A stretch of DNA of 64,000 bases, taken from the NCBI GenBank assembly GCA_963922205.1, contig CAWUHX010000173.1:1-64000 (forward strand), in the 5' to 3' direction. Position numbers and translations under genes: made by a program. Positions 11,122-64,000 of the stretch are shown piece by piece (positions within the stretch are counted from its first letter, which is position 1; each line of letters opens with the position of its first letter). This DNA is from Romanomermis culicivorax (taxonomy: Eukaryota; Nematoda; Enoplea; Mermithida; Mermithidae). Below the pieces are notes generated by a model, which saw only the letters and a program-made list of their open reading frames with translations, ran no database searches and had not been told where the DNA came from.

Positions 11122-11125
11122 TACG

Positions 11126-11721
11126 TGTCGAGGATGGACATAGTCTATCTCCAGGTTGCGAAGAAATAGCCAAAGTCGACGCAAATCGCGTCGACACCAA
11201 TTTTCATAGACACTGTGCATAAAAGTGCCGGTCCTCCATGTTTTTGGTCATTGGTGATTTTGTTGTTTATTTTTTATAATAAAGAAAATCGGCGGCCATG
11301 CGGCCAAATTGTATAATATTATTTTGTATTATTATTGTGGAGCTTTCGCCCAAAATACAACGTCCCCCGGCTGGACATTTATTGGCTTTCTTGTAGCAGA
11401 GGGAACGCAGGTTAGACCCTGGATTTCTGGAGTGCCATCCAGCGTGGAAGTCTACATTTGCAACTCAATTCTCAGCCTGATTTCTGGGTTTGTCCCTGAT
11501 CGGAAGTTACTTGAGCTCAGAGAGTTATTTGATCTTCTGCAGTTCTTTGGAACAAAAGCAGGTGATCTCTGTTGAACTTGAGACTGACCGAACTGTTGCG
11601 AACTATTTCTACCTTAGGTTTTGGCCTCATTAGGTGAATTAGCCAGTGACTGATTAGGTCTATTTTTGATATCAATTCTTTATTTATATTTCTTAATCTA
11701 ACCCCAAGTCTCATTTCAACA
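11126..11721 (+). repeat. 5' LTR of the gypsy-type element
   Basis: It starts TGTCGAGGATGG and ends CATTTCAACA. It aligns without gaps to 21401-21996. It holds 'tataataaagaaaatcggcg' near 11274, a possible polyadenylation signal (AATAAA) of the retroelement transcript. The frame at 11309-11575 recurs in the 3' LTR and belongs to the LTR, not to a gene. Confidence 0.92.
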
Positions 11722-11740: not shown

Positions 11741-11819
11741 CAAAGTAAGGGAAAATCAGAGGCAAACTTAAGGAGTCAAAAAACCTTTTGGTTTTTATAG
11801 AGAATTGGGAGGCTTTAAA

Positions 11820-13407
11820 ATGAGTAAAGACAACCTAGGTGGCCTCAAGAGTTCGGGTTTGCCCAGAACACCACCGGGAAAAAAAGCCCATGATGCAGAA
11901 AAGTTAATTGTCCTATCTTCAGCTGAAGAGGACAATTGCTCAGATCAGAGGCCTTTTTTGGTGGAAAAGGAAGGCAATTGACCTATGACCTCATCAGCTG
12001 TCAAAAGGGAGGAAGACGACGCCATATTATCATTGAACAAGGATCGAATATTCAAGATTCCGTTGTCAACAAACCTCCCAAGAAGAGGCGAATTTTTACA
12101 ACCGCCTATTACGGGACTGGCGCGTCCATTACAGAAGATCAACATTCCGGTGGTGGATCAACAGCAGCGCCGGCCAACGAATAAGCCCACTCAGTTATTG
12201 GATACTTACCATCGATTATACTGGGATAACAAGCAGGAGTAGCATCACGAAAATCCTCGAAAGAGCTCATTAGAGGATAAGCTGAACCAAATCATGAACA
12301 GGCTGGATGTTTATGATAGCATATTCGCCAACATTGCTAATAATGGTTCATAGAAAGCCAGTGAGACAAATGAATCGAGGCAAAGCAATGCTGGTTGTTT
12401 GGAACAAAGTGGTGCATTGAAGTTTGAGCAGACCCAGGAAGAGTTGGCATGGCAAAATGATGGTATCACTCCTCAGCAAGACTGTAGACGGAAAGACCAA
12501 AAGTCAAGTTTAGGTCCTAAAGAGCAGTATATGCCTCATTTGCCCACTACTTCAAGAGTGGAGCAGAGAGTGAGCAGTTGTGGTTTTAACGAAGGCGTAA
12601 AAAACCCGAGTCTGATAAATCCAACTGTATCACAACAAAGCAGTTGTATTAGGGGAGAGACCCAAATGACAGGCAGCAGGTTATGCCTACAATGATTCCG
12701 ATTGATCCGGCCTTATGGGTCAATCCGGCTCAAGTAGGCCCAACTGTCTATGACATTGAAGGGCTATCAAACCGAAATTACTGCAATCTGATATGCCAAG
12801 TAGACAGGCCCTTGCTTTCCTAGTGGAACTAGAAGGTGAGTTTCGAAAGTCTAACCTGCGTTCCAACAGCATTAACCCATTTGCCAAGGGATTTGCCGAA
12901 AGAATTGGCCCAAGAGTCAATGACATATAGGGAAGCCGGAGACAAGATTTTGAATTGTTGTGCTCCAGACTGTAACCTGGACATGCTCAAACAAGATTTA
13001 TTGGATATTAAACAGGAACCCGATGAAGCAGCAACCAAATTTTTAAAAAGGGTCAGAGCTCATGTGAATCTCGTTTACCAGAGTGAAACAAAGGAGTATA
13101 AAAACAAAGTGATCATTGAAACCTTTTTGTATAGAAGTTCTTTAACTTATTAATTAGAACTGCTGAAAGACATAGCAAAATTCAAAAATTGGTATGATCT
13201 TTCACAGGCAGTCTATGAGATAGAGTTAAAGTACAGGAATGCGATTAGAACATTTGGGCCAAGAGAGCAGCCCATGATGATAAACACGGCACAAACAGAA
13301 ATTGCTGAGGAGCAGCAAGCTGATGTGAATGTAATCCAAAGGTCTTATGAAAGCGCCCAAAAGCGCAATAAGGACTTATAAAACCAAACACAGAAAGGCA
13401 AACTCCA
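11820..13407 (+). pseudogene. gag: gag region of the gypsy-type element, broken
   Basis: The first ATG after the LTR is at 11820. That frame has early stops near 11976, 12240 and 12350 and runs to about 12695. The homologous reading then moves to a second frame (about 12780-13380, with a stop at 13151-13153) and to a third after about 13390, so at least two frameshifts are present. The surviving text is hydrophilic and Gln/Glu/Lys-rich, and the second-frame part contains a helical stretch (LDIKQEPDEAATKFLKRV) reminiscent of gag capsid helices. It supplies the structural protein of the particle in intact relatives. I infer gag from position and composition. Confidence 0.7.
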
Positions 13408-14898
13408 ATGCAATCTTTGCAAAATCAATTAATAGATATAGCAGATGATGAAGCACTTGAAGTACCTCCCCAACAGGCCATAATGCCTCGGCAACAGCCT
13501 GTTGAGGAGCCAAAAAGGGACTCCCTCGTGGTGGCTCTATCTGAAGAATTTATTAAAATGGCACAATGTTATGAAGAGATTAGGAACTCGACTAAAGCTC
13601 AAGAGGAAGCCATAACTGCTTTAACTCAGAAAGTTGATAAAGTGAAAGTGAAAAGTCAACAAGAGGTTCAGCAGCGAAAATGGTATACTTACCACGAAAA
13701 TAACACCCACAACACGATTGACTGTAGAACCTTGAATTTTTATAAAGGTCTACAAAATCGTGGAAGGGGTGGAAACAGTGGAAGAGGCTTTGGAAGAGGA
13801 AATCCCAGAGGAAGTTTTGGAAATTTCCGAGGTAGAGGAAATTTCAGAGGAAATTATGGAGGAAGTAGAAGAAGTTTTGGTAACAAAGGTGAAAGGGGAG
13901 CTTATCAAGTTTCGTTTCCTGACGACGAGGCGGAAAATTTGCAAGAATATGCCGAGTTCCAGGAATACGTAAAGTTGAAGAAGCTCAGGGAGCAGATGAA
14001 ATCGCTACAGGCTACCACCCAGCTGATGTTACCAGGACCAAATCTAATGGACCAACAACCAGTAATCGCAAATCAGAGTTCAAATACCCTGTTGGTTCCG
14101 CAAAAGGTAGTTAGTCAGTCACAAGCTTCCGGGCAGACAGACCAACCGCCGACTAGTGGTGTCAATAGTGTACAGCAAGAACCAATAATGGAGATGAAGT
14201 GGTGTGGCCTACATAACTGCGCCATGGAGAAAGAGGAGAGTGTGCCCAAAATGGAATGCAGTGCCGAGTATGAAAGAAAGGCCACTGCAGAGGAACTGGA
14301 TATGTTAGCAAGATACCCTAGAACGCAGCCATTTCACATCAGAGTAACTGTGTGTTCTACTACTGCAAAGGCACTGATTGACATGGGAGCTCAGTGTTCG
14401 GTGATGTCGGGTGATTTCTTGAAAAAATCACTTGGACTGGAGTATACAGCATACCCTAAGATCCTAAAAGTCACTGTCGCCAATGGTAAAGTAGTTAGTG
14501 CACATGGCTATGTTCAGTTTCAAATGGAATGTGACTATGGCCGTTTTCTGGTTAAAGCTATCATAATACCAGGGTCCCCAGAAGATTTAATATTTGGAAC
14601 AGACTTCCTAGCACATCCAGAAGTCAATACGGTAATAGATTTTGGAAAAGGTTCAATGACCATGATGGGTGTAAAGAAAAGTATTGATTTGTTAACATCT
14701 GATAAGAAAGCGATTCCAATAGTTGGGATGCATAATCTGATGATAGCAGAATCAATACAGGAAAATTCTATTGAAGAAGATCAAAGTTCGGCAATCCAGC
14801 AGCTAGAAGATCTAGTTCCGGTAGTGGCATGTAATAGAATTTACATCCCACACGGAACAGATCAGCTAGTGAAAGCTAAATTGTGGAACAAATCTTAA
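13408..14898 (+). pseudogene. Gag C-terminus, GAR domain and aspartic protease
   Basis: A 496-codon open stretch. Residues about 90-112 carry a zinc-finger-like H..H..C pattern (WYTYHENNTHNTIDCRTL). Residues about 115-165 are a Gly/Arg-rich block (RGRGNFRGNYGG), a nucleic-acid-binding domain found in some gag proteins. Residues about 320-410 are a retropepsin domain: ALIDMGAQCSVMSG, then a long beta region and LIFGTDFL. The catalytic triplet, normally D-T/S-G, here reads D-M-G (Met codon at 14383-14385), so the protease is probably dead; ACG to ATG is what CpG decay would give. The frame ends at TAA 14896-14898, but pol continues in the same frame, so the stop looks like a later mutation. Confidence 0.8.
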
Positions 14899-15954
14899 GC
14901 AAATAGGATAAATGGAATCATCGTAGAAGGAGATGATTCAGAAACAAGATTCAGAATAGATGATACTATAGTTGACGGTTCAAAAGAGGACTTTGTATTG
15001 ATGATCTCCAATAATACGGGTTCCGGTTGCCTGATAGAACCTAATCAAGTTCTTGGCTACTGTAACTCCGTATTTCAGGGAGAATCAAGTGTATCAATTT
15101 TGCAGGCTAGAAATTGTGGAGAAAATATCCTGGAGGGCATTTTCGATGCCAAAGAATCAAAATTCGATGGAGTTGTGTTTCTGGAAGCATTGTACAAAAT
15201 GACCTCTAAAGCTACAGTGTCAGAGGAACAGAAAGAGATGGCGATACAGCAACTCGTGAAATACCGGGATGTATTTAGCCTACCTCATGATCCTCTGACA
15301 ACTACTCCCCATCTTACTTGTAAAATTAATACAGGTGATGCTAGCTCTGTGGTGAAGCATTACTACAGAGCTGCCACTGAACGGCGACCATATATCAGAC
15401 AACATGTGCAGGAAATGCTGGACAAAGGAGTCATAGAGCCATCAAGATCGCCCTGGGCCGTGCCATTATTCCTAGTAGGGAAGAAAGATGGGTTGCTCAG
15501 GCCGGTTGTTGATTTCAGAGGCTTGAACAAGGTTACGAAGGATGATCGATATCCAATACCAAGAATGGATGATTATCTGGACTGCCTTGGGAGAGCAAAA
15601 TTTTATAGGACTCTTGACCTTAAGTGTGGTTATTGGCAAGTGCCAATGGAGGAAGGCAGTAAAGAAAAGACTGCTTTCCTATGTCAAGAAGGTTTGTTTC
15701 AGTTTTAAGTAATGCCCTTTGGACTGAAAAATGCAACAGCTGAGTTCCAGAGGATGATGGAAAGAATCCTTCATCCTCATGTTCAGAAGATATGTCTAGT
15801 TTACATAGATGATATCATATTGTCCTCAAATACGTTCGAGGAACACATAGAAAATTTGAAATTGGTCCTGGATGCTCTGAGACGAGCCCAGCTTACACTT
15901 AAACCGGAAAAATGTTAATTCCTACCAAAGAAGGTACATTTTCTTGTTCACATT
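14899..15954 (+). pseudogene. pol: Reverse transcriptase of the gypsy-type element
   Basis: In frame with the protease. RT landmarks occur in order: a VIEPSRSPWAVPLFLVGKKD start, RPVVDFRGLN, a TLDLKCGYWQVPM palm motif, MPFGLKNATAEFQRMM, the catalytic YIDD at 15802-15813, and TLKPEKC. Stops at 15706-15708 and 15916-15918 interrupt it, so it cannot make a full enzyme. The motif spacing is that of Ty3/gypsy RT. It would copy genomic RNA into cDNA inside the particle. Confidence 0.92.
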
Positions 15955-16938
15955 TTGGATTCTAATGGAATTTTGCCTGATCCCAATGAAGTGCAAGCTA
16001 TAAAAGAGTTTGAATTCCCGAACTCGGTCAAGCGTATGCAAAGGTTTCTCGGAATGCTCCAGTGGTGTAAAAAATTTATACCACATCTGGCAAAGCACGC
16101 AGAACCTTTGTATAAGCTGACAGCCGAGAAAAGGAATAAATGGCTCATCACAGAGGATCATTATAAAGCATTTAGTGCTTTGAAAAAAGCACTGGTATCG
16201 GTTCCATTTCTTAGGTACCCAGTAATGGATGGCTCAGCCCAATTCATTCTGCAAACCGATGCCAGTGGAACAGCACTAGGGGCTGTTCTGTATCAAGAAT
16301 TTGGGGATGACAAGTGGGTCATAGCATATAATAGCCCTGTGCTGAAAGAGGACGAGAAAAAGTGGTGTGCAACTGAAAGGGAGTGCCTCACAATTATCTA
16401 GGGCCTCAAAATCTATCGGCACTATTTATTGGGGCAGAAAATATTGATTAAGACAGATCACAGACCACTGTTATCAATGAAAGTCAATACTACAACAAAT
16501 GACAAATTGAAGCGGTGGTATGTGATCATAAATCAATACAACCACAAGTTAGAATACGTGCCTGGTAGACAAAATGCTATGGCTGACTTTCTCTCCACAA
16601 AGGATGAGCCAGAGGATGTGGTGAAATCACCACCAAAGTGGGAGAGTATGTTCAAATCAGATGTTGTTCCCTCTGATGTCAAAGGAATAAAAGAACAAGA
16701 ACAACAACAAATTTCCTTGGTGGCCAAGAGGAACAACATCTCTGAGAAAAATAAATCCCACAAGGATATGGAGGAAGGAGAGGATGCTCGAATTATTCCT
16801 CAGGACGAAAGAGAGCATTCCAAAAGAATAGAAGCAGTAGTAACCCGAAGCAAGGCTTGTGTTTCAGAAAAGGTGCAGAAAGAAAATCAGGAAACTGATA
16901 AATCTGAGATACCTGAGGAACAAGACAATGTGCAGTAG
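15955..16938 (+). pseudogene. pol: RT connection, RNase H and charged tail
   Basis: Same frame as RT. It has the connection region (FLGMLQWCKKFIPHLAKHAE), then RNase H with TDASGTALGAVLYQ, an ATEREC motif and KTDHRPLL, and ends with PGRQNAMADFLS, the gypsy-type RNase H/tether junction. A stop at 16399-16401 interrupts RNase H. The last ~100 residues are Lys/Glu-rich with VVTRSKA, like the linker that precedes integrase in related elements, but the frame ends at 16938 and no integrase follows. Confidence 0.88.
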
Positions 16939-17749
16939 TTATACCCTAGAAAGGAGGAGGAATTTGATAAACCAGGAACATCAGGTGAAAGAGAGATATC
17001 TATTGGCCTGATGAAGTCCAGCCACAGATGATGAAGTCCAGTTTGGGGAGCCGCACTCGCGGCAGAATAATCAATATTTTCTGGTTGACGGTAAGAAACA
17101 AATTTTTTGTCTTTGTAAATAGTTAAGTGAGGTAATGAGCGAAGGTTATGCTCATCAGGGCTGTTTTGCAAGGCTATTTCCATGCCCTTTCTGGGACAAG
17201 CTACCAACTGGGAGTTGAGAAATAGACACAAAAAATTAGGTAGAAATGGGTGGCAAGGGCCGAACCTAGGTGATCTGAAAAAGACTTCAGTCGAATTAGG
17301 TGATCTGTTTAGGGGAGGTTTTTGTCATTCCCGCTCCCTCTGGTTTCCGCAAAGCGGCGAAGAAGGGGATTAGCAGAAATTAGTCGTGGAGATCAGGGTT
17401 GTGATTGATTAATGCTGATCGAGTAGCAAGAGTGTTTTGGGTTTAGAGTGAAAAAACACCTAATTTCACATACTTTTGCCTATCAATTTTGGAATCTATA
17501 AAGGGACACCCAACGGCCGAAAAGGCTAAATATCAAGTTCCTGCTCCAAAAAATTTCAAAACTTCAAAAGTTCAACGGTGTTTTGCACAAAGGTGCCGGA
17601 GTTCTCCAAAGGTAAAAAGTATTAGTGGGTAAAATTACCCAAAGAGTTGAGAAAGAGTCCCGTAAATGCACATAAAGGAGTAGTAGAGTATATCTGAGTA
17701 AAAAACCTAAATCTCTCATAGATTTTTAGACTACAACATCCGTCGGGCG
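16939..17749 (+). other. Region between RNase H and ORF3, integrase missing
   Basis: I read all three forward frames. There is no HHCC zinc-binding pattern and no D,D(35)E core, and stops are frequent. Within it lies a donor-like GACG|GTAAGA near 17091 and an acceptor-like TTTTTAG near 17729, just before the ORF3 ATG. That layout could allow a spliced ORF3 mRNA like those for gypsy env genes (inference). Confidence 0.6.
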
Positions 17750-18638
17750 ATGCGGATAGCAGAGTTGGAAAAGTGGTTTTTTGCCACTTTTGAGTTCTGG
17801 CGGACCAATCCAATCGAGCCAATAACTGTTCCCATGGGAAGTGTGGAAAGGATGGTAAAACATCTCGAAAGCAGCACTTTCCGAGGCATGAACATTGTTG
17901 GCTTCGATGTAGAGAAATTTATCTGCGAGGACGCCGAAAATCTATTAGGTGGGGGATCGATAACAAAAAAGGCAACCAGTTTGCTAGATTAGTTTCATTC
18001 GCCCATCTAAATGGTAAAAGGTTGGTGCTCGACTTAACATTGTTGCAAGAGCAAGAGTGGAACATTTTGTTGCACTTTTTACACTCAGTGACGTTGTTAG
18101 TCAGTTATGCCCTTTTGGAGGACATAGTTTCAATTATTGATGTCCAAGGATGCAGAAAAAGCACCGATGGTCGTGATTTGTCTAAAGCAATTAGATGTAG
18201 TATCAAGGATGGAAATCTGGGAAGATACTATGATCTAAGTGTCACAGCAAAGGGGATCATAAGAAGACATATTACCAAATCCAGGAAAGCAGGAATCTGC
18301 CCTAAGACCTTAAAATTGAAAGGCCTTTTTGGCTAAATGTATCTGTCTGATATCGGTCCTCACCAGACTGTTTTTAGTCTTTTGCGTAATAGGCAAAATG
18401 TGGCCAAAGAAAAAGTCCCCGAGGAGATACTGCAGTATGCTGGTATGGATGCGTACTTTTCTTTGGCAATTTTTATGGGGGCATTTCACTATGGGTACGT
18501 GATTGAGCTATGTGGGGGAGTTGCTAACTTTCCTCAGGATATAGTCAATCCAGCTCAAATTGAAATTCTCTCATATAAATTCAATCAGTTTTACTCACAT
18601 ATAGTTACTGATTATAAACTACATAACTTTGTGGGTAC
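17750..18638 (+). pseudogene. ORF3, N-terminal part: DEDDy 3'-5' exonuclease-like domain
   Basis: The ATG at 17750 opens a frame with the hallmarks of WRN/Mut-7-type DEDDy exonucleases. Exo I is NIVGFDVEKF (Asp at 17906, Glu at 17912), followed by LVLDL. Exo II is VSYALLEDIVSII (Asp at 18121). There is then a DLSVTAKGIIRRHITKSRK stretch like the segment before motif III. Exo III is LQYAGMDAYFSL (Tyr at 18436, Asp at 18448, spacing YxxxD). All four acidic residues and the Tyr are present. A frameshift around 17945-17960 and a stop at 18334-18336 break it. Such enzymes trim RNA or single-stranded DNA 3' ends. A DEDDy ORF3 has been described in bdelloid rotifer LTR retrotransposons, so a captured enzymatic ORF3 has precedent. 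The reading continues beyond the nested element at 19936. Confidence 0.72.
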
Positions 18639-19935
18639 CACTGTTTTTTTTGTACAACACCCCTTTGTACTTGTACAAAGATTGGAATCAAAAGTCTTTG
18701 TACATTTTAATTTTTCTTTGTACAAAAAAAACTTTCGTTTTGTAAATACTTTTCATTAATCCTGAACCCAGTAATAACAAAGACAGGGAGGAAATCAAAA
18801 CCACTGTTTTTTTTCCTTGAACTTTTTTCCACAAATGTGGAAAGGGGTCAAATTTTTTTTCCACATGTGGAAAAAACTTTTTTTCATCTTGAAATCCTCG
18901 TTTTTTGGCTTAAAAATGCTCCCAGATGCTTTATCGCACTGTTTTTGAGCTTTTTCAAGCCTTCCCATGTTTTTAGAGAAGTTAATTCATTAAAATTGAA
19001 GAAAAAATTGAAATGTTCGATTTAAAAGCCCAATCTACAAGCGTTGTTGAACAAATTTTCTAGCAAACTATCCAAGAGCATAATTGACTTTAAATTACAT
19101 GAGAAATCAATGGTCAAGTCCTCTATGATGACAAGTGAAAGCCCAAAAAAGATGGCAATCTTTCCGGCGCTTAGCGCCGGAATTTTTTTGGGTATATTGA
19201 CATTCTGGGATGCTGGAAAATCAATTTTCCGAACATTTATTTCTAGAATGAGATTCCAATTTTGTGTTCAACAGTCGTAATTTCTAGAATTTTACTTGAA
19301 AAATTTTAAAAGGATCAGGAATATTTTCAGGTTTGGTAGAAATAGAGGAAAAATAATCATTTAGCAAATCAGTTATTTATTTATCAATAGGACTGATGGC
19401 AATTATGTCTCTATATTTAAGATCAGGAATACCTAGATGCAGAAAGTTTACTATTCACATACTGATAAAATTGGCGTAACTCTCCAGCTTCTACAAGATT
19501 CATCTCTTTCATTATTTGATGTCTTTTAGTTTCTGATCTCAATTTATTTCTAGGTATGCTTAGATGCATCCAGGTTTATTTGTACAGGTCAGGTTGCCAT
19601 GTGCAACTTGGGGAAAAATTTTAATGGCACAGATAGATTTTTGATCGCTCGCTCTAAAATCAATTGATAAGCTGTCAGGAGCTAGCTTTCTCAAACCTCA
19701 TTTGATTGATGTTGGTTTTCAACTTTAAAACTCAATTTTCTGAATTTTGGAATTTCAAACATCAGGATTCAATTTTGTATGCAGCTATGAGGACAACATT
19801 GGCAATAGCTCGAGACTGACGCACATCGTTCCTCCTGGAAAAAAAAATCTTTGTACATGCACAAAGATTGTCAAAATTTTTCTTTGTACAAGGGAAAAAA
19901 TCTTTGTAGAGTACCAAAAAAACAGTGGTGGGTAC
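18631..19935. mobile_element. Family D element inserted in ORF3
   Basis: The element at 18639-19927 (1289 bp) has ends CACTGTTTTTTTT and CCAAAAAAACAGTG, with the perfect 8-bp duplication GTGGGTAC (18631-18638 and 19928-19935). Inside the ends are inverted TTTGTACA..TGTACAAAG phrases. A second CACTGTTTTTTTTCC end at about 18802 shows another copy was inserted or recombined inside. The interior carries the hairpin CCGGCGC-TTA-GCGCCGG at 19164-19180 and a family F fragment near 19582. The 8-bp duplication suggests hAT-like. No transposase is visible. Confidence 0.8.
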
Positions 19936-21387
19936 ACCTGATATTGTGTTTAGGCAGCCTGAGGCCACCTACCACATGATGCACCAAGAAATGTACGCAA
20001 GATGAGCCACACAAGTGCAAGAAATAGGGCCTAAATTTTGTTGCCATTGGGACATTTGCAATCCTAGGAAGGGGAAAGAAAATTTGCCATGGTGGGGCAT
20101 CTACCCAGGTGCTTACCACCAAGGTAAAAAATTAAAACCCAATTCCTATAATGAAGCAAGTGACCCTGATGACGATGAAATGATTAGGCCTGAACACCAC
20201 TTGTCGGCCAAAGATAAATTGCGTCTGGAGTTGGTGGAGGAGATGGCACAGGGGAAGCAGTATCATGAGCTTACGCAGCCAGCGTCCTTGGTGTGGTTCA
20301 TAGACATAGCGAGAAAAGTTGTCGAATTACCCCAGGATCATCAAAAGCAAGCACTACTGGATTACCTAAAAACCATCTCATTCATGTGCCTATTGACATT
20401 GATCCTGGAATGGGGTATTTTGACAAAGATCACTGGAAGCCTCAGCTGGCGGAGTATGCTAAGGCATTTGAGGAGAAGCAGTTCTCAGAACTGCAAGCCG
20501 CTTGTACTTTAGTCCCGCTGGTCTTCCACGTGATCTGGCCCCATAGCAGAAAGGAACTGGATTTTGTAATGGCCGAAATGTTTAGTTACAGGTTCATTAC
20601 ATCATTCAGCCCAGAACTACAGGGCAAAATAAGGGAAATGGCTTGGCTGTCAGATGAGATGTTATCCCAGTATCTTTTGTTGGCTAAGACTCTTCCAAAC
20701 ATAGAGTATGAGATACCCCGAAAAGGTGCTGGAATATATGTTCGGATGAATCAGTTCGGATTTATGCTGATTCAGTTAAGGTTGTGGAAAGATGCGGATA
20801 TGTGCGCACCAATCCCTGGTAGTCCTGACACAATAACTGCGGACAGTAAGAGCTATAGCTCAATCCGTATTATTATGTTAGCTTCTACCATATCAAGCTA
20901 GCACAAAGGACGCCTTCATTAAGGTATGGGGTTACCTGGCAAACTAAAATCGACAAGTTTGAGGACGTCTATGGGTCATTGGCTGAAAATAGGGAGTATA
21001 GTATAGCCTTCCTGTTCTGTCCCTGGTCTCCAGCGTATGGCACAAAATGAAAGATCGCAGGATGGTTTGCAACCGAAGACCCTCAGCCCTGGTGCAGGTC
21101 CAATTGGATTCAGCGGTAGGCCAACAAAGTCGAGCCGATGGGGAGTCGTCAATCCATCGGCATCCAGACCAATAGGTAGCACACCCGGATGACCTTGTGG
21201 ACATTCCGGTATGCCTGGTAAAAAGACTTGAAGTAAGAGGGTGGTCATTCAGAAAGCTTTCTGCAAGGGGGCATGAATGACCAAAAAGGTTCAGAAAACT
21301 GCTTTGACTGTATTAGGTCCTGAAAAGGTTCCGAAATTGTCATTGCAGTGTATTATGAATCTTTTTAACCTCCCCTTGGTCAATTTT
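19936..21387 (+). pseudogene. ORF3, C-terminal part, unknown
   Basis: The same protein resumes after the insertion. One frame (to about 20400) has a cysteine/tryptophan-rich stretch (KFCCHWDICNPRKGKENLPW) and an acidic segment, with a stop near 20006. It shifts around 20380-20400 into the frame of 20293-20901, a helical region with VFHVIWPHSRKELDFVMAEM and LQGKIREMAWLSDEML. After 20901 only a stop-rich tail remains to the polypurine tract. No transmembrane segment or fusion-peptide pattern was seen, so it does not look like an envelope protein. I do not recognise the domain. It may be a partner domain of the exonuclease. Confidence 0.5.
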
Positions 21388-21400: not shown

Positions 21401-21996
21401 TGTCAGGGTTGGACATAGTCTATCTCCAGGTTGCGAAGAAATAGCCTAAGTCGACACAAATGGCATCGATGCCGATTTGCATAGACACCGTGCATAAAAG
21501 TGCCGGTCGTCTATGTTTTTGGTCATTGGTGATTTCGTTGTTTATTTTTTATAATAAAGAAAATCGGCGGCCAAGCAACCAAATTGTATAATATTATTTT
21601 GTATTATTATTGTGCAGTCTTCACCCAAAATACAATGTCCCCTGGCCGGACATTTATTGGCTTTCTTGCAGCAGAGGGAACGCAGGTTAGATCCCGGATT
21701 TCTGGAGTGCCACCCAGCGTGCAAGTCTACATTTGCAACTCAATTCTTGGCCTGATTTCTGGGTTTGTCCCTGATCGGAAGTTACTTGAGCTCAGAGAGT
21801 TATTTGATCTTCTGCAGTTCTTTGGAACGAAAGCAGGTGATCTTTGTTGAATTTGAGACTGACCAAACTGTTGCCAACTATTTCTACCTAAAGTTTGGAC
21901 CTGATTAGGTGAATTAGCAAGTGACTGATTAGGTCTATTTTTGATATCAATTCTTTGTTTATATTTCTTAATCTAACCCCTAGTCTCATTTTAACA
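21401..21996 (+). repeat. 3' LTR of the gypsy-type element
   Basis: It starts TGTCAGGGTTGG, ends CATTTTAACA, and has the same length as the 5' LTR. About 46 substitutions separate the two. Confidence 0.92.
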
Positions 21997-22000
21997 TACG

Positions 22001-23879: not shown

Positions 23880-26800
23880 AAACTTACAGTTGACCAAAAT
23901 TGAACTTATAGTGCAAAAATTTTTTACTATTTCTAGATGTTACTATCGATTCAGGAAGTTTATTCCAAATAGGAATAACTTTATTTGTAAAGAAGTATTT
24001 CTTAATATCAGTCCTTAGAATATTTGTTTTTAGCTTCCAATTGTGGTTTGACCAGGTATAAAAATGTGTGGTGCAGAAATCACTCAATTTTACATAGTGA
24101 TGGACCGATGCATCGGCATCGGCCGATTGTTGCGTTTTTCTGCCATTGGCCGATGTTCTGCTGAATAATTGGCCGATGGCCGATTGTTTGGCAACTTTTT
24201 ATTACAATGGATGCAGGTGCATATGCTTAAAAAACAGATTGTTCACATACATATTTTACAGCTACCTTAGTAAATACATTTTTTGTGAAAATGGTTGTTT
24301 TAATGTCTGGCATATTTGCCCTGTGTTGCCATTGATGAACTAGATAAGAATTTGACAAGCTATGAATGGGATATTTAAGCTGCGGCAGTCAAAATATACT
24401 TTAGTACAAGTATAATGTATTCACACCTTAGATAATTATGTTTTGGCAGCTTGTCAATTTGTTAAAATCTTTTGCAGAAACTGTAAAAATCTATGAATCT
24501 AAAAACGCCTGTATTTGGGAGGAAATAGCTGAAGAAAAGTAAGCTAGATTTTCTGCCTAAATTTTTTTGAAAAGCATAAATTAAAGAATCGTATGATTAA
24601 GAATTTTATGCCACTCAATCCACAATTTCAACTTTCCTGGATTGGGTTTATTAAAGGAGGAATTGTCGAGGAAAATGAATCAATATTTTTATAGAAATGA
24701 TAACCCATAGAAGACAATAGACTTCATGCTTTGGCATCTTTACTAGATCCTGGATTAAAAAAAGATGGATTGAAATTTGAAATATAACACATATTGATCA
24801 TACAAATCAAAATTAAAAAATTTAGCTTTTCTGTGATACTCAAGCAGAAGACAAAGCTGAACTATATCTGTTTTGTATAAAATGCTTCGGAATAGAAAAG
24901 TGACACAAATCAGTATCGTTGTCAAAATTGTTTACATAAAGCCCTTATTGTAAATTTTTCACTCCAAAAATTGTTAAGGGTTAAGTCAGTATACTCACCA
25001 ATTTCCATTTCTATATAATATATTGTTTATCAAAAAGTCGTGAAAATCTAAAACACTGCTTACTTTTCACTTTCATTATCTAGAAGCATTTCAAGAAAAA
25101 ACGACTATAGCTTTGGCTAGAATGGTTGCCGATCAAAAACAACAAAATCAACGCTTTTCTGAAAATATGGTTCAAACATTTGAATGATTCCTCAAACTCA
25201 TTCTCCAAACTTTCTCAGTAAGCCACAATTAATACTAATGTAAATAATTTGAGCATTTACACAAAACTGGCCAATTTCAGGCACTATTTGGGCATTGCAA
25301 GTTCATCTGAAGATGGTAGCCCGAAAAATATGCAATGTCGACATTTGAGCAAGCAAAAGCCATTGTTTTGGAATACATACTAGAATAATGGAAGTGAAAT
25401 GCTGCAACAAAACCAGAATTAGCTAATGTGAGTCAAAATAGTGTGCAGTTGAAAATAAGTTTAATTATGAAAAAAATTTCTTTAGCTTTCCATGAAATTT
25501 TTATCAGCTCCGATTGGGCCAGTAGCTAGTGAATGATCATTTTAAAAAGTGAGAGATGTTAGAAATAGAAAAAGATCCCATTTATTGCTGAGATTGGATT
25601 CGATAGTGCAAACTGGAAAAACAAGCTGAAGTCGAAGAAGCTTCTAGTGAACTCAGTAATCAAAGTGAAGGTAGTACAACAGATGCCGTTGTTGATGAAA
25701 AATTGGATGAATGAAATGTTGTTAATTATTGAATGTTGAAAATATCAGTAGAACCTTGTGAATAGTTCATACTAATTTTAAATTTATTACAGTGTAGCAG
25801 CTTCAGGTTGCGTTTTGTACATGTTACAGCTGATGCATCCACCGATGCATTGGCCAATGCCATCAGTGACCCTGGCGGATGCATCGGCATCAGCCAATGG
25901 CAAATTTTTGGCCACCGATCCATCACTAATTTTACATCTACTTCATGGTTTATTATCTTATATAATATAACCAATTCATTATAATGCCTTCTACTTTCAA
26001 GTGTCTCTAACTTTAATATAGTCAAATGATCATTGTAAGAAACCTCTGTATAGTTGAGAACCCTTTTTGTAAAGTATTTCTGTACTTTTTCAATGGCTCT
26101 GATATTCTCAAATGAGTGGGGTGACCAGATAGCTGCATATTCCAGAATAGGTCTGATGTACGTTTTGTATGCACTGGTCAGTAAGAATTCATCTTTGCTT
26201 ACAAATTGACAAAATATAAGATATAATCTGTAGTAAGCATTCTTTATAATATATGTTCATCGAAGTTAAAATTTATATGTTCATCAAATTTAAAATTTTC
26301 AGGTAAAAAAATACCAAGATCTTTAACATAATTATCACTATCCTCAATTATTCTATCATCAATCTTGTATTACTTCATTTTGTTATCAAATCCAAAATGC
26401 ATTACCTTACTTTTAGAAGTAGAGAGAGAGATCTTTCAGACCATCTGACAATAGATAATAGAAATTTTTGAAGGGTTATTTTCACATGAGCCATTTTCCA
26501 GATGCTCGGAATGCGCCCAGTCAGTACTGAAATATTGAAAAATTTTTTCTAACTGGTGGACTAAATAATTGGCTAATCTTTCAAATATTATTGGTTATCC
26601 ATCAGGTCCCACCAAATTTGAATTTTCAAATCTTCTAATTTGGAGCAAAATATCATCATCTGAAATTCTTATTTCTGGTAATCTAATATTATTTGAATTG
26701 AAATTTAAATCTGTCTCAATTCTATCATCTTTTGTGAAGACTGAGGAGGAAAAATTATTAAAAGCTTCTAGGATGTTTTCAGTTTCTATTAATATTTCAT

Positions 26801-27110
26801 CATTTTGTCTTGGGACTGAGATTTCTTGCCTATTATTTAGACCCTGGTTAACGTAGTTGTAAAATAATTTAAGGTTTTCATGTTGAACATGCTTAGTTTC
26901 TCTTTTAATATGAAAGTGTTTTATTGCTTGCTCAAGTTTTTTTGAAATGTCTGAGAAATGATTCTTTGATGCTATGTAGGTTTTTATTTTCCTTGTAAAT
27001 CTTCCAAGATTCAATTTCTTGTCCTGAAGGTGTCTTATACATCTGGGATATTTTCTCTTTCCTTTTTTCTTGTATGGAACCAGTCTTCCTCTTTGAAGAA
27101 GCCTGGGCTC
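23880..27110 (-). pseudogene. CR1/Jockey-type LINE, internally deleted and split by a hAT
   Basis: Read on the minus strand from 27110 downwards. There is the linker before RT (HFSDISKKLEQAIKHFHI), the RT start (ISDDDILLQIRRFENSN then GPDG near 26595), a palm-flanking part near 26300-26400 with KDLGIFLPENFKFDEHI, the late RT segment YKTYIRPILEYAAIWSPH near 26100-26200, and the C-terminal YFFTNKVIPIWNKLPESIV near 23900-23980. Between about 26430 and 26540 the frame jumps from the early RT to the late RT, so the catalytic core is deleted. The hAT at 24095-25928 splits the C-terminal domain. The same family is seen at 61503-64000. No function is expected. Confidence 0.82.
24087..25936 (+). mobile_element. 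hAT transposon with decayed transposase
   Basis: The element at 24095-25928 (1834 bp) has ends TAGTGATGGACCGATG and the complement of TAGTGATGGATCGGTGG, with identical 8-bp flanks ATTTTACA (24087-24094 and 25929-25936). Transposase remnants are readable between stops on the plus strand: LHALASLLDPGLKKDG near 24720 and FLSAPIGPVASE near 25500, the latter being the hAT C-terminal dimerisation region. GATGCATCGGC-type palindromes lie inside both ends. Frames are too broken for a protein. Confidence 0.85.
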
Positions 27111-28317
27111 GCTTCGCTCACAAATTGGCTTAACCTTTTATTCTTCTACAATTTAAACTTTGAAGCACGTAAAGTGCTTGAAAATTGACGGAGTTATTGA
27201 GTTTTGAGAGCCTGCTATGCCCCCAGAGCTCAGGAAAACCTTCTTTGATGCTCTGAACTATATTTTCTGACGTCATATTAGTATTGTCCATCCTTTTCCA
27301 AGTCGGATGAAGTCTGAAACTCGGTGTAAAGTCCAGAAATGACCAGTTTAGCTACTTTACACCACATTGTGTGATTTTACGTTCTGGTTTGTACACTAAA
27401 TTTAATTTGAGCATCGAATTCATCTTCTCATTTTTCCCATTCAAATGGTATATGACATGGCTGGATTTGATTCTTATTGAGCGATTTCGATTTTCTTGAC
27501 ATCAGCAATGATGCACTTCAATTTCAACTTTTTTAGCCCAAAAATGATAATCTGTCCTAACTCGGTCAATATTGCTCAAAATTTAAAAAAGATAGTGGTA
27601 GAGCTTGTTGAGATCTATCTATTGCCTTAAATTCAGTTTTGTTATAGTCAGTCTTACTGCAGCTATATGCAATAGTAATATGCAAGACATTACACTTCTA
27701 TAACTAAATTATTCTTTGTGCTACAGCTGTGAAACTTACATATTCCGATAGAACATAACCAAGGTTTTTCAGAACTATCCTTAAACTGTCTCAAAGTATG
27801 AAGTGTAAAGAATATGTAATGCCTAAAGATCGCCATTTCCAGAACTTTGGATTACTGTAACTCCCCAACCAAGATTTCATTTGACATGAGATAGGTATCA
27901 AAAGTCTTGTATTTTTATGCTCTACAACATATCAACAAATAAAAAACTTTCATTTTAGAACTTTCGAGATATTGCACCCCATGTTCAGCGATTTACACCA
28001 CAAACAAAATACTGATGAACTCGTCTCACTTAGTTCTATATGATGCAAAAAGAAATTCGAAGCTAACTTCAATAGCAGAAAAGTTACCATGTGGTGTAAA
28101 GTGGCCGAACTTGAAAATCCTCTGGATGTCAGAGTTTTGAGTTGTGCCCATATATCGCACATATATTCTGTTGCAGCATGTCGAAGCACTTCTGATGGCA
28201 CTGATTGCTATTTCTTGCTTGGATGCGATTTTTGTACTTTTCTGGCGGAATTTTGAAATCACTTTAAATCGGCGAATTTTCACTTTACACTCAAATTTTT
28301 TATATCAAACGAAGACT
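27111..28317. other. Intergenic, nothing recognised
   Basis: Begins with the short inverted motif GGCTCGCTTCGCTC near 27109. Overlapping short frames around 27950-28350 on both strands have no recognisable domain. No gene is supported. Confidence 0.4.
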
Positions 28318-30569: not shown

Positions 30570-31015
30570 GTTGGCGGTGGCCAGAGTGGCCAAAGCAGCT
30601 GCCTCAACTACTAATTGTTGCAAAAAGAGAGCGCCTTTCCTGCCACTCGATTGGCTCAGTTGGTTAGAGCGTGCAGATGGTAGCCACAAGGTCCCGGGTT
30701 CAAGTCCTGGACTAACTTTTACTGAGGTCCTGAGTAGTGGGAACAGGTTGCCTCAACACTAGTGGCCCTTGAGGGTCCATCAAACTCGATGGTAGAGGGA
30801 TGTTGAGAGTGGCCAAATCAGCCACCTCAACTATGAATTGTTGCAAAAAGAGAGCACCTTTCCCGTTGCTCGGTTGTCTCAGTTGGTTAGAGCGTGCGGA
30901 GGGTAGCAGCAAGGTCCTGGGTTCAAGTCCCAGACTGAGCCTAACTTTTACTGAAGCCCTGAGTAGCGGGAACAGGTTGCCTCATCAGACTGGTAACATG
31001 GTCGACTCATTCTGT
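30570..31015 (+). repeat. Tandem pair of tRNA-derived units
   Basis: Two units of about 220 bp (30570-30790 and 30793-31015) share 'attgttgcaaaaagagag', a tRNA-like core and 'tgagtagygggaacaggttg'. The cores are at 30645-30717 and 30868-30941. Both have a box A-like GGTTAGAGCGTGC context and a perfect box B (GGTTCAAGTCC), so they could recruit RNA polymerase III. This is probably a SINE or a duplicated tRNA pseudogene. Confidence 0.7.
30868..30941 (+). pseudogene. tRNA-like cloverleaf, second unit
   Basis: The acceptor stem GCTCGGT/ACTGAGC pairs with one G-T wobble. There is a D arm TCTCAGTTGGTTAGAGC and a T arm CTGGG-TTCAAGT-CCCAG. The anticodon stem TGCGG/CAGCA has a G-A mismatch and loop position 33 is G instead of T, so it is unlikely to work as a tRNA. 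The first unit (30645-30717) keeps the D and T arms but has a poor acceptor stem. Confidence 0.6.
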
Positions 31016-39073: not shown

Positions 39074-40036
39074 GGTCAAAACACGGGTTTTTTTTTCCAC
39101 GAACTTTTTTCCACAAATGTGGAAAGGGGTCAAATTTTTTTTCCACATGTGGAAAAAAATTTTTTCGTCTTAAAATCCTCGTTTTTTGGCTTAAAATGCT
39201 CACAGACGCTTTATCGCACTGTTTTTGAGCTTTTTCAAGCCTTCCGGTGTTTTTAGAGAAGTTAATTCATTAAAATTGGAGGAAAAATTGAAATGTTCGG
39301 TTTTAAAGCCTAATCTACAAGCATTGTTGAACAAATTTTCTAGCAAACTATCCAAGAGCATAATTGACTTGAATTACACAAGAAATCAATGGTCAAGTCC
39401 TCTATGATGACAAGTGAAAGCCCAAAAAAGATGGTATTCTTTCCGGCGCGCAGCGCCGGAAAATTTTTTGGGTATATTGACATTCTGGGATGCTGGAAAA
39501 TCAATTTTCCGAACATTTATTTCAAGAATTAGATTCCAATTTTGTGTTCAAGAGTCGTAATTTCTAGAATTTTACAAAGTATAAATTTCCTAAAGATATT
39601 TCCATGAAGCTTTTGAATTGATTTTAAGTTAGAAAACAAATAATCGCATCATAAATCATAGAGACTTGACGTGTATTGATCTTTCTCAAAAGGAAAAATT
39701 CCAATCTTCATTAAATATTATGATAAAATGTTGAAGATTACCAATTAAAACATGAGATACTACGTTTAAGATGATGAAAACTATTATAGATTAAGTGATA
39801 AATGTAGGTAGACATGATAAAAGCCGCGCCTGAGCTACTTAATGAATGATGATGATTATTAAAGTTATAACCGGCGCGTAGCGCCGGAAAATTTTGAGAT
39901 TTGGACCTCCTAAAATGCACCAAAATGCATCTTTTCAATATGAAAACCCCAAATTTTTCTTCCACATTTGTGGAAAGACCTCAAAAATTTTTTCCACATT
40001 ATAGTGCAAATGTGGAAAAAAAACAGTGGGTCAAAA
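39074..40036. mobile_element. Family D element
   Basis: The element at 39082-40028 (947 bp) has ends CACGGGTTTTTTTTTCC and GGAAAAAAAACAGTG, with perfect flanks GGTCAAAA (39074-39081 and 40029-40036). Near each end are 'ccacaaatgtgg'-type hairpins. Two CCGGCGC hairpins occur: loop GCA at 39443-39459 and loop GTA at 39871-39887. It is non-coding. Confidence 0.85.
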
Positions 40037-62616: not shown

Positions 62617-63482
62617 CAATCTTTTTATATAATTTTTTTAATTAGTCTATTCACTGTTTCTCTACAAATCAAACTTTCTGGGAAAAAATTCTCGACGAAG
62701 GGAAAAAACATGGGGGTTTCGACATGGAAAAGATGAATTTTGGTGCATTTGCTGCGAAAGAATTCTGGTGATCAAAATCTCAATTTTTCCATTTTTGTTA
62801 CTATTATTTTAAATATGGAGCCGAGTTTGAATTCATGATTATAATGGAATGGAGGTGATTTTCATAAATTTCAAGTTGAATTTGAGCTTGTCAAACTTGT
62901 GAAAGTATGAACATATTTTTCAGTTTGTAAAATGATATAATACATGTTTTCGAACCTTGTATGTTTATCGAATAAGTTATCCTTAAATTGATTTTCCAGC
63001 ATTTAGAGTGTCAAAATCTGAAAAAATCGTTGCATAGTGCCGGAAAGATATAGGAAACAACAGAACAATGAGAACAGAAGCTGCAATTTCAAAACCCTAT
63101 ACTTTTGAGTCGGAAGGAAATGAACTCAAGTGCAATCTTGGATGAAGATTTGTGCAAAATTAAACGAAATATCGCGTTTTTTGCATAAAAAGTTTTCTTT
63201 GCACAAAGGTTTCTAGGCCGATGTTTGTACGTGTGGAAATATGCCTGTAACTGAAAACGCTGGGTGGAAATCAAATTTTGAACAGTGATTTTTTAAAACT
63301 CGTATCAACTGATTGAATATCTACATAATTTAATTATATAGTGCGTTCTACATTGTGTTTCAAGCACGCTTTTCAATATTCTTCAATTAAAAATTTTTGG
63401 CTCCAAAAATTTTAATTTGGCACCTAAAAATTTAGGCCTAGGAGCCATTTGGCTCCTGGTTTTCAAACCAAAAAAAAGCCTG
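62617..63482. other. Interior of the hAT-like element, non-coding
   Basis: AT-rich sequence with family D phrases ('gaattttggtgcatttgctg', 'cagcatttagagtgtcaaaa') and no transposase motif. Confidence 0.45.
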
Positions 63483-64000
63483 TGAAAACCAAGTTATTTT
63501 ATATTTACGTTAACCAGGGTCTAAATAATGGGCAAGAAATCTCAGTCCTAAGACAAAATGATAAATTATTAACAGAAACTGAAGACATCCTAGAAGCTTT
63601 TAATAATTTTTTTTCCTCAGTGTTCACAAAAGATAATAGAATTGAGACTGATTTAAGTTTTAATTCAAATAAAAATAGGTTAGCAGAAAAAAGAATTTCA
63701 GATGATGATATTTTGCTCCAAATTAGAAGATTTAAAAATTCAAATTCGGCGGGACCTGATGGTTTACCAATAATAATATTTAAAAGATTAGCCAATTATC
63801 TAGTCCATCCATTAAAAAAAATTTTTAATATTTCTGTGCTGACTGGGCGCCTTCCAAACATCTGGAAAATAGCTCATGTGACTCCAGTTTTGAAGAAAGG
63901 GATCACGAGTGAAAGTTCCAACTATCGGCCTGTATCTTTAACTTGCGTTTGTTGTAGGATTCTTGAAAAAATCATAAAAGCTCAAGTGACCAACTTTCTT

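What the first reader, a model, noticed from the sequence alone, without database searches (positions are those of the whole stretch)
17750..18638. DEDDy 3'-5' exonuclease-like domain as ORF3 of a gypsy-type retrotransposon
Exo I (FDVE), Exo II (LLEDIV) and Exo III (YAGMD) appear in order with proper spacing, in the position where env normally sits. Enzymatic ORF3s of this type are known from bdelloid rotifer LTR elements. Here the exonuclease is followed by about 450 further residues of unknown type, and the element seems to lack integrase. An exonuclease might trim cDNA or RNA ends, or counter host small-RNA defence (speculation).
Basis: partly seen in the sequence, partly recalled or inferred. 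Interest (0 to 1): 0.78.

Follow-up and report, generated by a model that had tools for sequence, protein, structure and literature searches.

The report
Nematode retrotransposon with exonuclease-like third gene
A virus-like jumping gene in a mosquito-parasitic nematode carries, where an envelope gene might sit, a very long third gene that begins with an RNA/DNA-trimming enzyme-like domain and was kept by natural selection while the element spread; a similar arrangement was known from rotifers.

Summary
The motifs are real, but the window copy is a wreck: Exo I, II and III lie in order at 17750-18638 in two frames, with a frameshift and a stop between them. The element (LTRs 11126-11721, 21401-21996; TSD TACG) is a Ty3/gypsy-type retrotransposon of the nematode Romanomermis culicivorax. 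Its family is not integrase-less: 9 of 11 copies examined have integrase sequence; the window copy lost about 1.8 kb. ORF3 runs to about 1,357 codons: exonuclease-like domain (~1-300), conserved middle, charged linker, RGG-rich tail. The window copy keeps about half, with a 1.3-kb DNA transposon inside. Across 39 other copies, variants shared by four or more copies show purifying selection (omega ~0.18 in the exonuclease part; wrong-frame controls 0.90-1.38). Singletons look neutral outside that part (0.69 inside). The DEDDy label is likely, not proven: PF01612 matches 13 of 15 open copies (best E 0.0032), below its cut-off where scores were shown; no exonuclease was found among solved structures and no usable fold was obtained. 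Exonuclease ORF3s are known from bdelloid rotifers; five paper searches showed none for nematodes. New variant of a known kind.

The parts
11122..11125 (.). target-site duplication TACG, left
   Evidence: read, checked; matches 21997-22000
11126..11721 (+). 5' LTR, 596 bp, TG...CA
   Evidence: 92.3% identical to 3' LTR, 46 mismatches, no gaps; ends checked
11772..13381 (+). gag region by position, broken by stops and frameshifts
   Evidence: open pieces; no Pfam gag domain on the piece 13154-13378 or on two C13 pieces; zinc-knuckle-like CTYHENNTHN..DC in another copy is my reading
14341..14616 (+). protease
   Evidence: PF13975 E 1.2e-07
15478..15918 (+). reverse transcriptase, interrupted by stops
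   Evidence: PF00078 E 1.6e-08 on 15478-15687; YIDD in the piece 15709-15918 seen by eye
16150..16539 (+). RNase H, one stop inside
   Evidence: PF17919 E 2.9e-20 and PF17917
17012..17021 (+). site of an internal deletion of about 1.77 kb that removed the integrase
   Evidence: alignment to the C151 copy; integrase sequence in 8 of 8 further copies and no match in the window
17750..17992 (+). ORF3, first piece: start codon 17750 and Exo I FDVE (17903-17914)
17944..18333 (+). ORF3, second piece in another frame: Exo II LLEDIV (18112-18129)
18337..18638 (+). ORF3, third piece after a TAA stop: Exo III YAGMD (18436-18450)
18639..19927 (.). non-autonomous DNA transposon inserted in ORF3, ends CACTG.../...CAGTG, 8-bp TSD GTGGGTAC (18631-18638, 19928-19935)
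   Evidence: absent at this place in the C13 and C151 copies
19936..21012 (+). ORF3 continuation (conserved middle region), broken by a stop and a frameshift
21012..21013 (+). junction of a second deletion, 2.0-2.5 kb relative to C13 and C151: the 3' half of ORF3 is lost here
21401..21996 (+). 3' LTR, 596 bp; purine-rich GGCTGGAGGGA just upstream
21997..22000 (.). target-site duplication TACG, right

Best explanation
The window holds one dead, internally deleted copy of a multi-copy Ty3/gypsy-type LTR retrotransposon family of Romanomermis culicivorax, ordered LTR-gag-PR-RT-RNaseH-IN-ORF3-LTR. Shown: ORF3 is a separate ~1,357-codon frame kept by purifying selection over its whole length while the family spread. 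Likely: its first ~300 residues are an RNase D-like DEDDy 3'-5' exonuclease with the catalytic residues in place. Inferred: ORF3 is an RNA-binding nuclease (RGG-rich tail) that acts on 3' ends of RNA or single-stranded cDNA during the element's cycle, in the particle or on the element's transcripts, and is not an envelope protein.
For: Family: 40 scored places of 88-100% identity among 238 candidates, the window's own included. Integrase sequence, 91-94% identical to the C151 one, in 8 of 8 copies sampled for an open exonuclease domain; in C151 PF17921 E 5.4e-21. One copy has an open frame of 1,370 codons; 15 of 39 are open over the first 320 codons. Selection on variants shared by 4 or more copies: omega 0.18 (0.12-0.27) exonuclease part, 0.18 middle, 0.24 linker, 0.34 C-terminal part; the same variants in wrong frames 0.90-1.38. 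Catalytic columns in 39 copies: D52 37, E54 39, D124 39, Y229 38, D233 39. PF01612 for 13 of 15 open copies, best E 0.0032. Not env-like: no N-glycosylation sequon, highest 19-residue hydropathy 1.8; last 127 residues pI 11.7 with RG/RGG repeats.
Against: No match above Pfam's curated cut-off was shown; the full ORF3 and the three window pieces give no PF01612 match, and NCBIfam gives none for the full ORF3. Solved structures searched with the family profile give no exonuclease. Profile-profile against RNase D/NrnC: local E 0.43 with Exo III in register, global E 0.23 with a different, wrong alignment. One open copy against 13 RNase D/NrnC sequences: no better than shuffles, best z 1.7. The fold of a window piece is useless (pLDDT 36). 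Selection: some variants shared by 4 or more copies are stop codons (4, 5, 11 and 10 in the four parts), so part of the shared variants arose in lineages with broken ORF3; singletons in the exonuclease part are not fully neutral (0.69, 0.54-0.90). Two of 11 copies examined lack integrase. Activity, substrate and place in the cycle are untested.
Confidence: 0.72

Rival explanations
1. The exonuclease attacks host small RNAs, blunting silencing. Nematodes outside clade V are reported to lack PRG-1/piRNAs, and HENN-1, which puts the 3'-end methyl cap on piRNAs, is reported lost in the same pattern, so transposon siRNAs of this host may be open to 3'-5' trimming.
For: PMC4323106 (passages seen): no 5'-triphosphate small RNAs detected in R. 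culicivorax, PRG-1/Piwi absent in this species, HENN-1 with the same loss pattern. Selection on ORF3 and its RGG tail.
Against: No expression, localisation or small-RNA data here; HENN-1 was not looked for in this genome. Rodriguez et al. [quoted passage not shown]
Confidence: 0.2
2. The domain keeps the fold and residues by descent but works mainly as an RNA-binding scaffold, as described for EXD1/Maelstrom.
For: Some DEDD-type proteins in the piRNA pathway are inactive RNA binders (stated in PMC5408684, passage); the RGG tail fits RNA binding.
Against: All five catalytic columns are kept in 37-39 of 39 copies, unlike inactive derivatives.
Confidence: 0.15
3. The motifs are coincidence and ORF3 starts with a domain unrelated to DEDDy exonucleases.
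For: Sub-threshold profile scores and no exonuclease among solved structures.
Against: Ordered, spaced motifs in 0 of 20,000 shuffles; PF01612 matches 13 of 15 open copies.
Confidence: 0.12

Closest known systems
Juno and Vesta LTR retrotransposons of bdelloid rotifers with DEDDy ORF3 (Rodriguez, Kenefick and Arkhipova 2017, PMC5408684)
   Same: LTR retrotransposon with gag-pol and a third ORF that encodes an RNase D-like DEDDy exonuclease instead of env.
   Different: Host phylum Nematoda. ORF3 here is ~1,357 codons with further regions and an RGG tail; the rotifer ORF3 length was not looked up. No dUTPase was seen between PR and RT in the window copy. The rotifer paper found intragenomic ORF3 variation mostly neutral (env and GDSL types tested, section 3.6); here older variants show purifying selection. 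Sequence homology was not tested (no rotifer sequences held).
Terminons / Athena Penelope-like elements of rotifers (PMC5408684, PMC6431247, passages)
   Same: Retroelements carrying DEDDy ORFs as accessory genes.
   Different: Penelope-like, endonuclease-deficient, telomeric, up to 40 kb; not LTR elements.
Dada DNA transposons with a DEDDy domain (PMC3706591, passage)
   Same: Mobile element that encodes a DEDDy exonuclease.
   Different: The domain sits inside a DDE transposase of a DNA transposon.
Cellular RNase D / NrnC / Rrp6 / MUT-7 / EXD exonucleases (PF01612)
   Same: Exo I D-x-E, Exo II D, Exo III Y-x3-D in order.
   Different: Sequence similarity is in the twilight zone; Exo II D to Exo III D is 109 residues here and 70 in RNase D (D85, D155).

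Membership tests
DEDDy 3'-5' exonuclease (DnaQ-like, PF01612) | Exo I D-x-E | tested here: met
   D in 37 of 39, E in 39 of 39 copies
DEDDy 3'-5' exonuclease (DnaQ-like, PF01612) | Exo II D | tested here: met
   39 of 39
DEDDy 3'-5' exonuclease (DnaQ-like, PF01612) | Exo III Y-x3-D | tested here: met
   Y 38 of 39, D 39 of 39
DEDDy 3'-5' exonuclease (DnaQ-like, PF01612) | family profile above curated cut-off | tested here: not met
   matches 13 of 15 open copies, best E 0.0032 (score not shown); scores shown 12.5-13.6 bits against 23.6; full ORF3 and window pieces no match
DEDDy 3'-5' exonuclease (DnaQ-like, PF01612) | DnaQ/RNase H-like fold | tested here: inconclusive
DEDDy 3'-5' exonuclease (DnaQ-like, PF01612) | metal-dependent 3'-5' exonuclease activity | not testable with these tools
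   needs protein
Ty3/gypsy LTR retrotransposon | LTRs TG...CA, TSD | tested here: met
Ty3/gypsy LTR retrotransposon | PR-RT-RNaseH-IN order | tested here: met
   PR, RT, RH in the window; IN after RH in C151 (zinc-binding domain above cut-off, core matches PF13683 and PF00665 below cut-off) and IN sequence in 8 of 8 further copies
bdelloid Juno/Vesta lineages | dUTPase between PR and RT | tested here: not met
   no dUTPase family on the window pieces 13372-14895 and 14899-15705 at E<=10; other copies not scanned for it
bdelloid Juno/Vesta lineages | ORF3 sequence kinship to rotifer DEDDy ORFs | not tested
   no rotifer sequences held
errantivirus-like element with env | signal peptide/TM/N-glycosylated glycoprotein in ORF3 | tested here: not met
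   0 sequons, maximum hydropathy 1.8 over 19 residues, none of the six most hydrophobic windows near the N-terminus; no dedicated TM or signal predictor was run

The most novel reading that the evidence does not exclude
ORF3 is a transposon-encoded RNA-binding exonuclease that erodes the unprotected siRNAs of a nematode lineage without piRNAs and without the 3'-end methyl cap, a counter-silencing enzyme kept by selection during the family's spread.
Probability: 0.12. Interest if true: 0.82.

Novelty: new variant of a known kind. Interest (0 to 1): 0.5.

Why it matters
It extends exonuclease-bearing LTR elements from rotifers to nematodes, as far as the paper searches here show. It supplies what the rotifer study did not find for the ORF3 types it tested: codon-level evidence that an ORF3 was selected during spread. 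With at least 40 copies, some open, in a host reported to lack piRNAs, the role of such ORFs becomes testable.

Tried and rejected
Rejected: (a) a family without integrase: a deletion in this copy and one other of 11 examined. (b) Chance insertion of an ORF in one copy: at least 39 other places have it. (c) env-like ORF3.

Led nowhere: protein searches; none of 682 candidates; 3 of 597 candidates, all R. culicivorax fragments; the 7,980 best candidates scored, none. Viral contigs, none confirmed: 21 stretches; 34; 5. Solved structures: no exonuclease. hhalign to RNase D/NrnC not significant. Smith-Waterman of one open copy against 13 RNase D/NrnC sequences no better than shuffles. The bacterial RNase D scan (best 80 of 202 kept, enterobacterial as far as read by title) was too narrow; E. 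coli and 9 of the 80 went into A2. PHROGs gave two weak families for one member each. The fold was unusable. Rfam had no match in the window.

Not done: search for diverged ORF3 families, host PF01612 genes and total copy number in G000, because the genome search answered only once. Papers: 5 searches answered and 7 papers opened (PMC5408684, PMC3706591, PMC6338049, PMC10879605, PMC4323106, PMC6431247, PMC5718144), all but the first by passages only.

Full report
Where it is. The held genome has 359,112,060 bases in 595 contigs and the window is on its contig C173. These figures equal the Romanomermis culicivorax v2 assembly (359.1 Mb, 595 scaffolds; table passage of PMC10879605). The only protein relatives found are named R. 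culicivorax (3 of 597 candidates, 61-84% identity).

The element. Two 596-bp LTRs (11126-11721, 21401-21996) are 92.3% identical without gaps, begin TG and end CA, and are flanked by TACG on both sides. Between them are a gag region (named by position), protease (PF13975), reverse transcriptase (PF00078) and RNase H (PF17919/PF17917), with pol broken by stops. The window copy is a dead copy.

Integrase. The window has no integrase match by blastn or tblastn. In the copy at C151 about 1.77 kb more lies between RNase H and ORF3. It encodes a zinc-binding integrase domain (PF17921, E 5.4e-21, above cut-off) and integrase-core matches below their cut-offs (PF13683 E 0.00046, PF00665 E 0.0037). I sampled that place in 8 more copies, chosen for an open exonuclease domain and so not a random sample: 8 of 8 carry the sequence at 91-94% identity; in two of them the longest open frame is only 188 or 220 codons. 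The C13 copy at 1.81 Mb (L009) lacks it. So 9 of 11 copies examined have it; the window's and C13's lost it by deletion.

ORF3 in the window. The start codon is at 17750. Exo I (FDVE, 17903-17914) lies in one frame. Exo II (LLEDIV, 18112-18129) and Exo III (YAGMD, 18436-18450) lie in another, with TAA at 18334-18336 between them. At 18639-19927 a 1,289-bp DNA transposon with CACTG/CAGTG ends and an 8-bp duplication GTGGGTAC interrupts ORF3. ORF3 resumes at 19936 and is cut off near 21012 by a second deletion of 2.0-2.5 kb relative to C13 and C151. About 655 codons' worth remains.

ORF3 in the family. A DNA search scored 40 of 238 candidates; all 40 cover bases 1-889 of the query at 88-100% identity, the window's own copy included. 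I fetched the other 39. 15 of 39 are open through the first 320 codons and one has an uninterrupted frame of 1,370 codons, 1,357 from the first ATG. Regions: 1-300 exonuclease-like; about 301-700 middle; 700-1049 charged linker (pI 4.9); 1050-1229; and a 127-residue tail of pI 11.7 with RG/RGG repeats. There is no N-glycosylation sequon and the highest 19-residue hydropathy is 1.8, so it does not look like env.

Selection. I aligned the 39 copies on one natural open copy and classed variants by how many copies share them. Variants shared by 4 or more copies should mostly predate the separation of the copies; singletons mostly follow it (inference). For shared variants in the true frame, the N/S ratio relative to neutral expectation is 0.18 (0.12-0.27) in the exonuclease part, 0.18 (0.13-0.25) in the middle, 0.24 (0.18-0.32) in the linker and 0.34 (0.25-0.48) in the C-terminal part. 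The same variants read in the two wrong frames give 0.90-1.38. Singletons give 0.69 (0.54-0.90), 0.94, 1.05 and 1.16 in the four parts; variants in 2-3 copies give 0.61, 0.65, 0.91 and 1.05. So the whole ORF3 was under purifying selection during spread. Limits and contrary signs: 4, 5, 11 and 10 of the shared variants in the four parts make stop codons, so some lineages spread with a broken ORF3, perhaps helped in trans or by later exchange between copies. The singletons of the exonuclease part are below 1. The copies are the best by similarity to the window's exonuclease region. Gene conversion and recurrent mutation are not modelled. Alignment gaps reach 4-10% beyond codon 700.

Is it a DEDDy exonuclease? 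For: the catalytic columns hold D 37, E 39, D 39, Y 38, D 39 of 39 copies; as the copies are close, this says little more than that the residues were not lost. Patterns for the three blocks with spacing occur in 0 of 20,000 shuffles of one open copy; Exo I plus Exo II alone in 0.02%. These patterns were written after seeing the hits and partly from recall of WRN, EXD2 and MUT-7 motifs; of the two true RNase D sequences shown, one misses the Exo I pattern and both miss the Exo III pattern. PF01612 matches 13 of 15 open copies, best E 0.0032; the only other Pfam family matches 1 of 15. Against: in the rows shown scores are 12.5-13.6 bits, the cut-off is 23.6. The three window pieces give no PF01612 match at E<=10 and neither does the full ORF3. 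The family profile finds no exonuclease among solved structures. hhalign to RNase D/NrnC gives local E 0.43 with Exo III in register, and in global mode a wrong alignment. Pairwise scores are at shuffle level. The fold of a window piece failed (pLDDT 36). I put the DEDDy identity at about 0.85-0.9; this is judgement.

How it may work. Shown: a selected third ORF with the residues of the enzyme class. Inferred: an exonuclease acting on 3' ends of RNA or single-stranded cDNA, held on nucleic acid by its RGG tail. A silencing-related role is attractive in this host. PMC4323106 (passages) reports no 5'-triphosphate small RNAs and no PRG-1/Piwi in R. culicivorax, and HENN-1 lost in the same pattern outside clade V. 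Nothing here tests it. Expression is open: about 1.2 kb without a frame above 80 codons lies between integrase and ORF3 in C151, and TTTTTAG, which resembles a splice acceptor, ends 20 nt before the ATG and is nearly invariant in 39 copies.

What is known. Bdelloid Juno and Vesta elements carry RNase D-like DEDDy ORF3s, acquired at least twice, with kin in Penelope-like elements; the authors suggest 3'-end processing and consider silencing (PMC5408684: abstract, passages, sections 3.3 and 3.6). Their variation test covered env and GDSL ORFs and was mostly neutral. Dada DNA transposons of a fungus and a brown alga also hold the domain (PMC3706591, passage). In five paper searches (listings seen, 7 papers opened) I saw no report of such an ORF3 in a nematode; the library lacks most subscription journals. 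I file it as a new variant of a known kind: same architecture and enzyme class, different phylum, a long ORF3 under selection, kinship to the rotifer ORFs untested.

Noticed in passing
18639-19927 and about 39089-39575: Non-autonomous DNA transposon with CACTG/CAGTG ends and 8-bp duplication; parts of the insert recur in the window near 39.1-39.6 kb (families D2, D11-D13).
   Followed up: partly
25729-26256 (-), 26598-27137 (-), 63428-64000 (+): Open pieces that look like non-LTR retrotransposon reverse transcriptase; the last two share a 285-nt stretch (I1). Label from reading, not from a search.
   Followed up: no
30868-30941: tRNA-Thr (ggt) predicted by ARAGORN; it overlaps a repeated stretch (30583-30713 / 30806-30936, D17), so it may be a repeat-borne sequence.
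   Followed up: no
17497-17505: TATAAAGGG in the non-coding stretch before ORF3, possibly an internal promoter (read by eye).
   Followed up: no
L009 (C13 copy): Another copy has lost the integrase region by a deletion with different end points, so internal deletions there recur.
   Followed up: partly
ORF3 alignment of 39 copies: Stop codons shared by 4 or more copies in all four parts of ORF3: some copies with broken ORF3 may have multiplied.
   Followed up: no
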